Assembly (NCBI RefSeq): GCF_012843435.1
Contig: NZ_JABAFC010000017.1
Span: 1 to 64,000, forward strand
DNA length: 64,000 bases
Reading direction: 5' to 3'
DNA from: Psychrobacillus sp. BL-248-WT-3
GTDB taxonomy: Bacteria; Bacillota; Bacilli; Bacillales_A; Planococcaceae
In this document: positions 1 through 51,867 of the stretch, in pieces
Layout of the letters: each line of letters begins with the position of its first letter
Position numbering within the stretch: position 1 is the first letter of the stretch
Notes under the pieces: generated by a model
Told to the model about the DNA's origin: nothing
Databases searched by the model: none
The model's input: only the letters and a program-made list of their open reading frames with translations
Made by a program: the position numbers and the translations under genes

Positions 1-76
<76 letters not shown>

Positions 77-85
77 ATATATATA

Positions 86-162
86 CGGGAAGTAGCTCAG
101 CTTGGTAGAGCACTTGGTTTGGGACCAAGGGGTCGCAGGTTCGAATCCTGTCTTCCCGACCA
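86..162 (+). tRNA. tRNA-Pro (TGG)
   Basis: Acceptor CGGGAAG pairs with CTTCCCG. Anticodon stem CTTGG/CCAAG holds loop TTTGGGA, giving anticodon TGG. CCA is encoded. Confidence 0.96.
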
Positions 163-179
163 GTTATTAATAAAAATTT

Positions 180-255
180 GGGGCCTTAGCTCAGCTGGGA
201 GAGCGCCTGCCTTGCACGCAGGAGGTCAGCGGTTCGATCCCGCTAGGCTCCACCA
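180..255 (+). tRNA. tRNA-Ala (TGC)
   Basis: Acceptor GGGGCCT pairs with AGGCTCC. Anticodon stem CCTGC/GCAGG holds loop CTTGCAC, giving anticodon TGC. CCA is encoded. Confidence 0.96.
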
Positions 256-282
256 AATATAAAATTTTCTTTTAAAGTTCCT

Positions 283-356
283 GGCGGCGTAGCTCAGCTG
301 GCTAGAGCATTCGGTTCATACCCGAAAGGTCGTGGGTTCGACTCCCTCTGCCGCCA
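283..356 (+). tRNA. tRNA-Met (CAT), elongator
   Basis: Acceptor GGCGGCG pairs with TGCCGCC. Anticodon loop TTCATAC gives CAT. The full C-G closed acceptor and its place before the Ile2-like gene fit elongator Met, as in the B. subtilis trnB order. CCA is not encoded (the gene ends ...GCCGCCA then TCTT), so it must be added by the CCA enzyme. Confidence 0.9.
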
Positions 357-362
357 TCTTAA

Positions 363-439
363 GGACCTTTAGCTCAGTTGGTTAGAGCAGACGGCTCATA
401 ACCGTCCGGTCGCAGGTTCGAGTCCTGCAAGGTCCACCA
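363..439 (+). tRNA. tRNA with CAT anticodon, probably tRNA-Ile2 (lysidine-modified)
   Basis: Acceptor GGACCTT pairs with AAGGTCC. Anticodon loop CTCATAA has anticodon CAT. Body sequence and position between Met and Ser match the Bacillus tRNA-Ile(CAU) gene, whose C34 is converted to lysidine by TilS. This reading rests on remembered family sequence; elongator Met is the alternative. CCA is encoded. Confidence 0.85.
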
Positions 440-451
440 ACATAATTTTTC

Positions 452-544
452 GGAGGAATACCCAAGTCTGGCTGAAGGGATCGGTCTTGAAAACCGACAG
501 GCGGGTCATACCGCGCGGGGGTTCGAATCCCTCTTCCTCCTCCA
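452..544 (+). tRNA. tRNA-Ser (TGA)
   Basis: Class II tRNA with a long variable arm. Acceptor GGAGGAA pairs with TTCCTCC. Anticodon stem TCGGT/ACCGA holds loop CTTGAAA, giving anticodon TGA. CCA is encoded. Confidence 0.95.
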
Positions 545-651
545 TCTTATTGTTAGTGGGAAATTATACATAACGTCGACTTCAAGTAAGCTTGGAAGAC
601 GGAAAAGTTATTAAATACATAGTTGATTTAAATTTCAACTACTCTTATTGT

Positions 652-728
<77 letters not shown>

Positions 729-731
729 AAT

Positions 732-807
732 GGTCCCGTGGTGTAGCGGTTAACATGCCTGCCTGTCACGCAGGAGATCGCCGGTTCGATCCCGGTCGGG
801 ACCGCCA
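732..807 (+). tRNA. tRNA-Asp (GTC)
   Basis: Acceptor GGTCCCG pairs with CGGGACC. Anticodon stem CCTGC/GCAGG holds loop CTGTCAC, giving anticodon GTC. CCA is encoded. Confidence 0.96.
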
Positions 808-950
808 TTTATTATTCAATATGTTAGAGATTTAGGATAAGCAAGCAAATCGAGGATGCAATCGAACGAAAGAAGGAGCGTACTAAAGTACGTGACTGAA
901 TGAGTGAGTGAAGCTGACAAAGAGTTGTGCCGCTTAGCATAAATCGAAGA
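808..950. other. unusually long tRNA spacer with possible structured repeat
   Basis: This 143-base spacer between tRNA-Asp and tRNA-Phe is far longer than most spacers in the cluster. It contains a small inverted repeat (GCGTACTAAAGTACGT near 878) and runs such as GAATGAGTGAGTGAAGC. No reading frame with a ribosome binding site was seen. It may be processed leader RNA or a dispersed repeat; function unknown. Confidence 0.4.
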
Positions 951-1026
951 GGCTCAGTAGCTCAGTCGGTAGAGCAAAGGACTGAAAATCCTTGTGTCGG
1001 CGGTTCGATTCCGTCCTGAGCCACCA
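951..1026 (+). tRNA. tRNA-Phe (GAA)
   Basis: Acceptor GGCTCAG pairs with CTGAGCC. Anticodon stem AAGGA/TCCTT holds loop CTGAAAA, giving anticodon GAA. CCA is encoded. Confidence 0.96.
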
Positions 1027-1034
1027 TTTATCAC

Positions 1035-1108
1035 GCGGGTGTAGTTTAGTGGTAAAACCTCAGCCTTCCAAGCTGATGATGAGAGTTCGATTCTCTTCAC
1101 CCGCTCCA
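1035..1108 (+). tRNA. tRNA-Gly (TCC)
   Basis: Acceptor GCGGGTG pairs with CACCCGC. Anticodon stem TCAGC/GCTGA holds loop CTTCCAA, giving anticodon TCC. CCA is encoded. It directly follows Phe; the B. subtilis trnB order has His between them. Confidence 0.96.
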
Positions 1109-1114
1109 ATTAAT

Positions 1115-1191
<77 letters not shown>

Positions 1192-1195
1192 TTAT

Positions 1196-1270
1196 TCCGA
1201 AGTAGCTCAGTGGTAGAGCAATCGGCTGTTAACCGATTGGTCGTAGGTTCGAGTCCTACCTTCGGAGCCA
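1196..1270 (+). tRNA. tRNA-Asn (GTT)
   Basis: Acceptor TCCGAAG pairs with CTTCGGA. Anticodon stem ATCGG/CCGAT holds loop CTGTTAA, giving anticodon GTT. CCA is encoded. Confidence 0.96.
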
Positions 1271-1277
1271 TATATAT

Positions 1278-1368
1278 GGGGAAGTACTCAAGTGGCTGAA
1301 GAGGCGCCCCTGCTAAGGGTGTAGGTCGGGCAACCGGCGCGAGGGTTCAAATCCCTCCTTCTCCGCCA
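1278..1368 (+). tRNA. tRNA-Ser (GCT)
   Basis: Class II tRNA with a long variable arm. Acceptor GGGGAAG pairs with CTTCTCC through one G-T pair. Anticodon stem CGCCC/GGGTG holds loop CTGCTAA, giving anticodon GCT. CCA is encoded. Confidence 0.95.
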
Positions 1369-1375
1369 TATATAA

Positions 1376-1447
1376 GGCCCCTTGGTCAAGCGGTTAAGAC
1401 ACCGCCCTTTCACGGCGGTAACACGGGTTCGAATCCCGTAGGGGTCA
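1376..1447 (+). tRNA. tRNA-Glu (TTC)
   Basis: Acceptor GGCCCCT pairs with AGGGGTC. Anticodon stem CCGCC/GGCGG holds loop CTTTCAC, giving anticodon TTC. CCA is not encoded. It is the last gene of the cluster, directly followed by a terminator. Confidence 0.95.
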
Positions 1448-1488: not shown

Positions 1489-1689
1489 TTGTGCCTTTAT
1501 GATATGTAAGGATTGTTATAACATTGTAAATCCAGGCGGGAAGAAGTATCAAGAAAAGTGAATCTATGCTGCACTTATTCGTGAATTTCCTTTCAAATAT
1601 TGTTAGCAGAACGATTACACTAAAGTGATCCATTATAGCATTTGGGCATTATCTTCTTGTGAAGAGATTTACTTCTAAAAGTTCTTCCA

Positions 1690-1815
1690 CCGACCGATTA
1701 TTGAAGAGAACCGTCCGATTATCAGGTAAAACCGACCGATTATTGAAGAGAACCAACCGATTATTTTGCCTAACCGACCGATTATTAAACAAAACCGTCC
1801 GATTCTAAAGAAACT
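1690..1815. repeat. six tandem units, exact 21-bp period (core CCGNCCGATTAT)
   Basis: Copies of the core CCGACCGATTAT or close variants start at 1690, 1711, 1732, 1753, 1774 and 1795, all exactly 21 bases apart. About 12 bases of each unit are conserved and the rest vary. The array sits in the noncoding gap between the tRNA terminator and the menA terminator. A minus-strand frame stays open across it (about 1808 to 1649) and would encode a seven-residue repeat, but it has no ATG or ribosome binding site. The rest of the gap 1489-1892 holds nothing recognisable. Confidence 0.85.
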
Positions 1816-9864: not shown

Positions 9865-9910
9865 AATCGGTCGGTTCTGCCATAAAATCGGTCGGTCACA
9901 CCAATAATAT
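9865..9910. repeat. two to three 21-bp units (core AATCGGTCGGT), inverted relative to 1690 array
   Basis: AATCGGTCGGT starts at 9865 and again at 9886, exactly 21 bases apart, with a degenerate third unit near 9906. The core is the reverse complement of the ACCGACCGATT core of the array at 1690-1815. It is noncoding; stop codons interrupt the units. Confidence 0.75.
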
Positions 9911-47616: not shown

Positions 47617-48597
47617 ATGGCTCAGTTAGTCAAATTACAGGATTATATATCCCGCTATCAAATTGATTTAAAGCGGTATCCTACTCAATTTGTTCGTTTA
47701 AAAAAACAACAATGGGAGCGAGTCAACGCTTCTTATGAAAGAGGAGCTCTAGATACATCGTGGATGGAGAAGGAGCAGGAGGAGGATTTAGAGGTAGAGG
47801 AAAAAAAATCCTTTATCTCTAAATTGTTTTCTCGAAACAAAGAAGAAACCTCTACAGAGATATTGGATGAAAAGGAGGTAGAGGATCAAGAAGTTCCAGA
47901 AGAATCTACTACTCTTTTTTTCGAACCTAATATTGTTTATAACCCGAGTTCTAAAGAAGAGCTACGACGAATGTATTTAGACCAATTATTTCATTTTCAA
48001 TTAAAATGGGCTAGCTCTACTTTAATGGAAAAATCCTATGTAGATCCAAAGTATATGAGAGATAGCTTGTTACGACTTCTCACACTACAATTACCTGATA
48101 ATTATTTTCTGTTTTATTACCCAATCCTTAAACTGAAAAAAGCCCCTGTGGAATTAGATGTTATTATCGTTTTGCCTACTGAAATTATATGTATAGTCAT
48201 GTTAGAAGGCAGAGACTTGGATGCATTTATCGGAAGTGGGGATCGTTTTTGGGTGAAGAAAAGTGGAAAGAGCGAAAGTAAGGTATTAAGTCCGATTATC
48301 AGTCTTAATAGAATGGAATCTATTCTATTGCAGGTTTTTAAAAAGGAAGATATTGATTTGCCTATCCGAAAAGTAGTTCTATCCAGAAATGGTTACATCG
48401 ATTATCCAGGCTCTGCCTATCAGACTCAATTAGTAGATACTAGAAGCTTTCCTGCATGGTTTCAAGCTTTAAAATCGTCTCCATCTCCGATGAAGCATAT
48501 GCAGTTTAAGGCAGCGCAGGCATTACTTAATCTGGTTCAGACAACCTCCTATTCTAGGGCAAGCTGGGAGCTGGAAAGCGAGATAGAAAATGAATGA
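47617..48597 (+). CDS. ytlQ: NERD-like protein (YtlQ)
   Basis: A 326-residue soluble protein at the ytlQ position. An acidic linker (about residues 50-105) is followed by a region with VELDVIIVLPTEIICIVMLEG, which resembles the PD-(D/E)XK-like core of NERD nuclease-related domains; the catalytic Lys is not obvious. Function unknown. Overlaps ytlR by 8 bases. Confidence 0.65.
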   Translation: MAQLVKLQDYISRYQIDLKRYPTQFVRLKKQQWERVNASYERGALDTSWMEKEQEEDLEVEEKKSFISKLFSRNKEETSTEILDEKEVEDQEVPEESTTLFFEPNIVYNPSSKEELRRMYLDQLFHFQLKWASSTLMEKSYVDPKYMRDSLLRLLTLQLPDNYFLFYYPILKLKKAPVELDVIIVLPTEIICIVMLEGRDLDAFIGSGDRFWVKKSGKSESKVLSPIISLNRMESILLQVFKKEDIDLPIRKVVLSRNGYIDYPGSAYQTQLVDTRSFPAWFQALKSSPSPMKHMQFKAAQALLNLVQTTSYSRASWELESEIENE

Positions 48598-51122: not shown

Positions 51123-51317
51123 TTATTCTCCTACAACTGTTTTTTCAGAAAATAGTTTTCCAAACAAAGAAACAGCAGAGAGTGTCAAACCAATTATGAT
51201 GAACCCGGTGATTAAGTTCGATGTGTTTAAACCATAGTGAGCAAATGCTGATGATAAAATGTAACTGATCACAAAACTCAGAAGGACTACAAAAATTATA
51301 TTTGTACTTTTACCCAT
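51123..51317 (-). CDS. hypothetical two-helix membrane protein, 64 residues
   Basis: Two hydrophobic segments (about residues 7-26 and 34-53). GAGGTGA lies about 10 bases before ATG. No family recognised. It ends 12 bases after the ytnP terminator. Confidence 0.6.
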   Translation of the reverse strand: MGKSTNIIFVVLLSFVISYILSSAFAHYGLNTSNLITGFIIIGLTLSAVSLFGKLFSEKTVVGE

Positions 51318-51430
51318 TTTGAAAAATTCACCTCGCTTTCTAATAAGGGATACGTTAGAAAGAGAAGGAATGTTTCAATTATTTGGATAATAATTCCGGT
51401 GTAATGGCGCGCACCCTCTTAAGGACTCTG

Positions 51431-51661
51431 CAAGACTTGAAGTATTATGCGCAACACTTTGTGAATTAGTGCAACACTTTCCGTATGCGCAACACTTGAA
51501 GCAATACTCGCAACACTTACCCAAATTAGCGCAACACTTCACTCATTTCTCGCAACACTTTGGAGTATAGGCGCAACACTTTTGATATATGCAACACTTG
51601 GAGCTAAGGCGCAACACTTCACCCAATTCCCGCAATACTTCGCCTCATATGCGCAACACTT
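51431..51661. repeat. twelve-unit array, mainly 21-bp period (core GCGCAACACTT)
   Basis: The core CAACACTT (variants CAAGACTT, CAATACTT) starts at 51431, 51452, 51472, 51490, 51511, 51532, 51553, 51574, 51592, 51612, 51633 and 51654. Seven of eleven steps are exactly 21 bases; the others are 18 or 20. Most cores are preceded by GCG or GC. Stops occur in all frames I followed, so it is not a repeat protein. Its core is unrelated to the 1690 and 9865 arrays. Confidence 0.85.
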
Positions 51662-51670
51662 CCACAATTA

Positions 51671-51700
51671 AAAAAAGGTGAGTTATTAAACTCACCTTTG
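51671..51700 (-). terminator. terminator of the 54-residue gene
   Basis: On the minus strand, stem AAAGGTGAG/CTCACCTTT is followed by a T run, directly after the stop codon at 51703. Confidence 0.8.
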
Positions 51701-51702
51701 CA

Positions 51703-51867
51703 TTATTTATTCGATTCTTTTGTAATATGTTTTGTCACCTTATTTTTAGAGACTTCGGCAAAGTCTATCCCGAGTTCTGTATCGGGGTTAACTGTAGGAT
51801 TTTTGTATAGCTCCTGGCTGTTATGTGTTCTTTTATTCATGGTTTTTTTGTTGTTCTTACTACTCAT
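51703..51867 (-). CDS. hypothetical hydrophilic 54-residue protein
   Basis: Starts MSSKNNKKTMNKRTHNSQEL and ends VTKHITKESNK. It is Lys/Asn/Thr-rich, without Cys or a membrane helix, a composition like minor spore-core proteins. ATG at 51867 follows the strong site AGGAGGTGATG and the stop is directly followed by a terminator, so this minus-strand frame is preferred to the plus-strand frame at 51698. No family recognised. Confidence 0.75.
   Translation of the reverse strand: MSSKNNKKTMNKRTHNSQELYKNPTVNPDTELGIDFAEVSKNKVTKHITKESNK

What the first reader, a model, noticed from the sequence alone, without database searches (positions are those of the whole stretch)
51431..51661. Second 21-bp-period family with an unrelated core (GCGCAACACTT)
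Twelve units with 7 of 11 spacings at exactly 21 bases but a completely different core. Two independent cores with one period suggests a shared mechanism that sets unit length, for example a DNA-wrapping protein or a common slippage or amplification process.
Basis: partly seen in the sequence, partly recalled or inferred. Interest (0 to 1): 0.6.

Follow-up and report, generated by a model that had tools for sequence, protein, structure and literature searches.

The report
Nuclease-linked 21-base repeat arrays
The stretch is one of many short-repeat arrays scattered between genes of a Psychrobacillus bacterium, and each repeat type appears to be paired with its own DNA-cutting-type protein whose DNA-reading end seems to match the repeat, which would give these unexplained 'constant-length' bacterial repeats a testable partner.

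Summary
In detail: 12 units of GCAACACTT at 51430-51661, mostly 21 bases apart. It is not alone. The genome (Psychrobacillus) has about 10 loci of this core, about 18 of ACCGACCGATTAT (also at 1689-1806) and several other core families, all with ~21-base pitch, intergenic, not coding, and with unit numbers that differ between two strains. Bacterial repeats of constant 20-21 nt size and varying sequence are already described (Subirana & Messeguer) without a known function or partner. New here: each core family is paired with a NERD-domain protein gene lying beside or inside one of its arrays (36 of 51 such genes have an array within 300 bp, against 40 of 527 other genes). These proteins keep an intact D..ExK nuclease motif, a four-cysteine zinc ribbon and a variable C-terminal, probably winged-helix, domain. 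At one locus in two strains of the species the C-terminal domain and the adjoining core switch together. ACCGACCGATTAT arrays occur only in the two of 19 Psychrobacillus genomes that carry the matching protein. The system works like RAYT-REP, with an unrelated enzyme and direct repeats. Direct binding, cutting and spread are inferred, not shown.

The parts
51430..51661 (+). B-family array: 12 units of core GCAACACTT (TTnCCGCAACACTT), pitch 21/20/18
51669..51699 (-). intrinsic-terminator-like hairpin (aaaggtgag..ctcaccttt, T-run on the minus strand) abutting the array; array begins about 8 bases beyond it
   Evidence: sequence; same arrangement in G061 and G001
51703..51867 (-). 54-aa ORF (MSSKNNKKTMNKRTHNSQELYKNPTVNPDTELGIDFAEVSK...) upstream of the terminator; conserved in G061 and G001
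   Evidence: no Pfam match
51123..51317 (-). 64-aa small membrane-type ORF on the far side of the array
   Evidence: no Pfam match
1689..1806 (+). A-family array: 6 units of core ACCGACCGATTAT, pitch exactly 21; between the tRNA cluster and a minus-strand gene (4 units at the same place in strain G061)
9866..9896 (-). A-family two-unit array (5 units at what appears to be the corresponding place in strain G061)

Best explanation
The array is a dispersed set of recognition sites (13-15 bp on a 21-bp, two-helical-turn pitch) for a cognate NERD-family protein: a D..ExK nuclease domain, a four-cysteine zinc ribbon and a C-terminal, probably winged-helix, domain that reads the core. Each genome has several such proteins. 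Each protein's gene lies next to or inside a 'master' array of its own core, and further arrays of that core are scattered over the chromosome at promoter-free places such as just past terminators and between convergent genes. I propose that it works like a RAYT-REP system: the protein binds the core and nicks or cuts there, which promotes gain, loss and spread of units, and the arrays persist as largely selfish elements. SHOWN: the arrays, their shared pitch, the neighbourhood with NERD genes, intact catalytic residues, one core per NERD gene, co-occurrence of protein and core, joint switching of C-terminal domain and core, and strain differences in unit number. INFERRED: direct binding by the C-terminal domain, cutting or nicking in the cell, and the mode of spread.
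For: NERD genes have an array within 300 bp in 36 of 51 cases against 40 of 527 other genes of the same genomes (Fisher p=2.7e-24); NERD proteins of other subfamilies 1 of 12. All 52 proteins keep D70, E83, K85, Q115 and four cysteines. At one locus of the same species, flanks are 95-100% identical, the N-terminal domain ~95%, but residues 260-306 only 30-43%, and the adjoining core switches from GCAACACTT (G061) to GCAAGGTT (G000); the sister species with the GCAACACTT core matches the G061 C-terminus at 65-70% but the G000 one at 30-50%. Two other strain pairs with an unchanged core show no such drop. Among 47 pairs with N-domain identity above 45%, core similarity follows C-terminal identity (rho 0.55) more than N-domain identity (rho 0.36). 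A-core arrays occur only in the two of 19 genomes with a >90% identical A-type NERD. 67 of 86 arrays carry a core found beside a NERD gene of the same genome, against 20.7 expected from other genomes' cores. Arrays favour convergent and avoid divergent intergenic regions. Unit numbers differ between strains. Cores vary less than the bases between them.
Against: No binding or cutting data exist. The C-terminal coding end adjoins the 3' array, so part of the joint switch could be simple linkage. In the window's own strain the locus carries the GCAAGGTT allele, so the GCAACACTT arrays here have no exact partner gene, yet they show no more core decay than in the strain that has it. E-core arrays persist in G000 without an E-type NERD gene. 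No usable structure model was obtained, and the winged-helix assignment rests on weak matches in one member. Some NERD genes have only degenerate arrays or none detected.
Confidence: 0.68

Rival explanations
1. The arrays are host-useful docking sites: NERD-family proteins bind them to organise the nucleoid, insulate convergent genes or assist repair, and spread is a by-product.
For: Same positions kept between strains; enriched between convergent genes (11 of 27 array sites in G000 against 61 of 474 other regions); near family-wide presence of such arrays.
Against: Orientation relative to genes and along the chromosome is mixed; unit numbers and whole families change quickly between close species; an invariant nuclease motif is not needed for mere docking.
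Confidence: 0.25
2. Part of a defence or self-recognition system: the nuclease attacks incoming DNA, and the arrays titrate it or mark self.
For: NERD domains occur in known defence proteins (weak matches to MAD6, PglW and a NERD+UvrD defence model); paralogues turn over and some are broken by stops.
Against: No defence genes seen recurrently next to the arrays; no relatives found in the phage or plasmid records searched.
Confidence: 0.12
3. Neutral minisatellites made by replication slippage; the neighbourhood with NERD genes is incidental.
For: Whole units and super-units (e.g. 41 and 80 bases) are gained and lost between strains; arrays avoid promoters.
Against: Spacers diverge while cores stay identical; unrelated cores share the pitch; neighbourhood p=2.7e-24 and co-occurrence of protein and core.
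Confidence: 0.08
4. RNA-level function: arrays act as transcribed small RNAs, sponges or Rho-loading sites.
For: Proposed for constant-size repeats in general (PMC8161180); the B and D strand is pyrimidine-rich.
Against: Array strand is not fixed relative to neighbouring genes; the window array lies beyond a terminator; no credible Rfam match.
Confidence: 0.07

Closest known systems
Bacterial tandem repeats of constant 20-21 nt size and variable sequence (Subirana & Messeguer, PMC8161180 and PMC6749651)
   Same: 20-21 nt pitch, several unrelated families per genome, species-specific, non-coding, short conserved sequence in each unit, unit number varies between strains
   Different: Those papers name no partner protein (NERD and nuclease do not occur in either text) and suggest small RNA or nucleoid proteins; here a candidate cognate protein family and its variable domain are identified
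RAYT-REP / REPIN systems (PMC2817692, PMC3116915)
   Same: An endonuclease-type gene flanked by its own intergenic repeat, cognate copies dispersed over the genome, species-specific repeats, presence of the gene correlates with abundance of the repeat
   Different: RAYTs are IS200/IS605-type tyrosine transposases acting on palindromic REPs; here a PD-(D/E)XK NERD protein with zinc ribbon and direct, non-palindromic repeats on a fixed 21-bp pitch
STAR elements of Staphylococcus (PMC3532100)
   Same: Intergenic arrays of a ~14-bp conserved core with other sequence between, expanding and contracting at fixed loci
   Different: One GC-rich core with 40 bp or more between copies; no partner protein described
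Plasmid iterons (general knowledge)
   Same: Direct repeats at two-helical-turn spacing bound by a protein
   Different: Dispersed at many chromosomal loci; no Rep gene among the neighbours

Membership tests
Constant-size 20-21 nt bacterial tandem repeats | Unit length 20-21 nt constant across unrelated sequences | tested here: met
   A 21 in 133 of 134; B 21/20/18; D 21/19; C mostly 22/21
Constant-size 20-21 nt bacterial tandem repeats | At least four units, several families per genome, non-coding | tested here: met
Constant-size 20-21 nt bacterial tandem repeats | Species-specific sequence | tested here: met
RAYT-REP | Partner is a tyrosine (IS200/IS605-like) transposase | tested here: not met
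   Partner matches PF08378 NERD in 22 of 22; no transposase catalytic domain found
RAYT-REP | Repeat is a palindrome | tested here: not met
   Cores are asymmetric direct repeats; no short inverted repeats within the array
RAYT-REP | Partner gene flanked by cognate repeat, cognates dispersed | tested here: met
NERD domain family (PF08378) | Match above curated cut-off with conserved D..ExK | tested here: met
NERD domain family (PF08378) | Nuclease activity | not testable with these tools
   residue conservation only
CRISPR array | Repeats of ~20-50 bp with unique spacers of ~20 bp or more, cas genes | tested here: not met
   9-14 bp core with 6-12 bp between; no cas genes seen among the neighbours
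Coding minisatellite | Open frame across units | tested here: not met
   20- and 19-base steps break the frame

The most novel reading that the evidence does not exclude
A new class of nuclease-satellite system: NERD (PD-(D/E)XK)-zinc ribbon-winged helix proteins with an exchangeable DNA-reading domain, each coupled to its own genome-wide family of 21-bp direct-repeat arrays, an independent counterpart of RAYT-REP that could explain constant-size bacterial satellites in general.
Probability: 0.55. Interest if true: 0.88.

Novelty: new variant of a known kind. Interest (0 to 1): 0.78.

Why it matters
Bacterial tandem repeats of constant 20-21 nt size have been described for several years with no function or partner. 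If NERD-family proteins read these cores, the puzzle becomes testable with one protein and one short DNA. The protein family would also offer a natural series of DNA-reading domains whose targets can be read off the neighbouring array, much as the targets of RAYTs can be read off their flanking REPs.

Tried and rejected
Translated repeat: rejected, because 20/19-base steps break the frame. Rfam RNA: no credible match. Replication-oriented motif (KOPS or Chi type): A-array strands are mixed along the closed G061 chromosome. Orientation relative to genes: not fixed. Core decay where the matching NERD allele is missing: tested, no difference for B (p=0.76) or D (p=0.66), so it gives no support. 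Core against spacer divergence between strains is partly inflated by misaligned units, so I do not lean on it alone. NERD relatives in viral contigs, plasmids and phages: none found. C-terminal domain against PDB sequences: nothing useful. The whole genome was not available as a file, so family counts rest on searches and about 0.8 Mb of stretches, most of them chosen around A and B arrays.

Full report
What is there. The window holds 12 units of GCAACACTT at 51430-51661 with spacings 21, 20, 18, 21, 21, 21, 21, 18, 20, 21, 21. No 9-mer clusters more than four times in simulated windows. On the minus strand the array starts about 8 bases past the intrinsic terminator of a 54-aa gene and ends 112 bases before a 64-aa gene. 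A second family, ACCGACCGATTAT on an exact 21-base pitch, lies at 1689-1806 and as a two-unit remnant at 9866-9896.

It is genome-wide. The host genome is a Psychrobacillus: besides scattered single hits, the only named organism with repeated array-type matches to the paired core that sits among the close relatives is P. faecigallinarum, which appears to be the same genome as the same-genus handle G001. The core GCAACACTT ('B') has about 10 loci and ACCGACCGATTAT ('A') about 18. An unguided scan of about 0.8 Mb of this genome, mostly around known arrays but including 13 stretches not chosen for arrays, found further families: C (CCCATAAA), D (GCAAGGTT), E (TTTATCAC) and others, against zero arrays in shuffled sequence. 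A keeps 21 in 133 of 134 spacings, B uses 21/20/18, D 21/19, C 22/21/19. Logos show a conserved footprint of 13-15 bp and 6-8 free bases.

It varies between strains. A second strain of the species (G061, closed genome) has arrays at nearly all the places that could be compared, but unit numbers differ: 12 against 5-6 for the window array, 12 against 8, 18 against 14, 15 against 19, 28 against 15. The sister species has a decayed B array at the same place, and another species (G009) has there an array of a different core, GCAAGTAA. Arrays lie between convergent genes more often than expected (11 of 27 in G000, p=0.0005) and rarely between divergent ones (1 of 27, p=0.009).

It is family-wide. 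A pattern asking only for GCAA every 21 bases, four times, hits 75 of 151 genomes and 17 of 19 genera of the family, with species-specific cores such as GARTGTTAAGCAA, TTCTATCGTGCAACTTT or AATTCGCGCAATA. Some of these hits are coding or short perfect repeats, and the reversed control also hits in some genomes, because other cores share the pitch. Sampled stretches from other families of the class, about 170 kb, showed none.

The partner. Three different core families turned out to adjoin genes for NERD-domain proteins. Looking at NERD genes in 12 genomes, 36 of 51 of the roughly 280-440 aa type have an array within 300 bp, usually directly 3', against 40 of 527 other genes in the same genomes; NERD proteins of other subfamilies 1 of 12. 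The lead came from G000 and G061, but the other ten genomes carry most of the count. The control stretches were partly chosen at arrays, which makes the comparison conservative. Several genes have the same core on both sides. All 52 proteins keep the nuclease motif D70, E83-x-K85 with Q115 and a C221xxC224...C238xxC241 zinc ribbon. The C-terminal part reads ITNxECRxFLxLxSxxxAxRxLxxMNL..G....TxY, which I take for a winged helix; database support is weak.

Protein and core go together. At one locus the two strains carry the same gene with flanks 95-100% identical and residues 20-180 almost identical, but residues 260-306 drop to 30-43% and the adjoining core changes from GCAACACTT (G061) to GCAAGGTT (G000). 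The sister species, with the GCAACACTT core, resembles the G061 C-terminus (65-70%) and not the G000 one (30-50%). The two other strain pairs keep both core and C-terminus. Across 47 pairs with N-domain identity above 45%, core similarity follows the C-terminal domain (rho 0.55) more than the N-domain (rho 0.36). A-core arrays are found in G000 (93 hits) and G061 (69 hits) and hardly at all in 17 other Psychrobacillus genomes (none in 15, a single diverged hit in two), and only those two carry an A-type NERD above 90% identity, the next best being 57%. 67 of 86 arrays bear a core seen next to a NERD gene of the same genome, against 20.7 expected from other genomes' cores; outside Psychrobacillus 18 of 26 against about 2.4.

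Limits. The C-terminal coding end lies next to the 3' array, so linkage could cause part of the joint switch; the genome-wide co-occurrence is the independent argument. In the window's strain the B/D locus carries the GCAAGGTT allele, so its GCAACACTT arrays have no exact partner; they show no extra decay. G000 also has about ten matches to the E array without an E-type NERD gene. So the protein is not needed for short-term persistence of the arrays. No binding, cutting or structure data were obtained.

Comparison. Constant 20-21 nt bacterial repeats are known (PMC8161180, PMC6749651); neither paper mentions NERD or nucleases, and literature searches found no paper linking NERD to such repeats. 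The closest working analogue is RAYT-REP, where a gene flanked by its repeat has dispersed cognates, but enzyme and repeat architecture differ, so this is not a member of that family.

Noticed in passing
window 47617-48597 (+): 326-aa protein with a weak NERD match (26 bits) conserved through the genus; by eye it lacks the D..ExK and zinc-ribbon features, so it is probably a degenerate relative and not the partner of the array.
   Followed up: partly
L149, L151, L156, L031, L026: B and D arrays lie side by side in the same intergenic regions, in both strains; A and C do so in L144. The intergenic places seem to be shared landing sites.
   Followed up: partly
G002:C7:136780-137091 and G002:C4:184782-185090: Short matches (~106-125 aa open frames) covering only the zinc ribbon and C-terminal part of the NERD protein: possible stand-alone DNA-reading proteins.
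   Followed up: no
L313 3912-4253; G000:C37:1-175: The E-type NERD gene, and apparently the A-type one, lie next to the ends of rRNA operons (5S sequence), and A arrays also occur near such places.
   Followed up: partly
L264, L266, L268, L308: Short palindromes of the type TTTTCGC..GCGAAAA recur around several NERD genes, possibly a separate REP-like repeat.
   Followed up: no
   Followed up: no
L226 4025-4224: Five near-identical 42-bp repeats (TGCGACGAGCGAGCGAAGCGGCGCAGGAGCACTTGTATTGTA) in an intergenic region, twice the usual pitch.
   Followed up: no
window 1-1446: Dense tRNA cluster directly upstream of the A-family array at 1689-1806.
   Followed up: no
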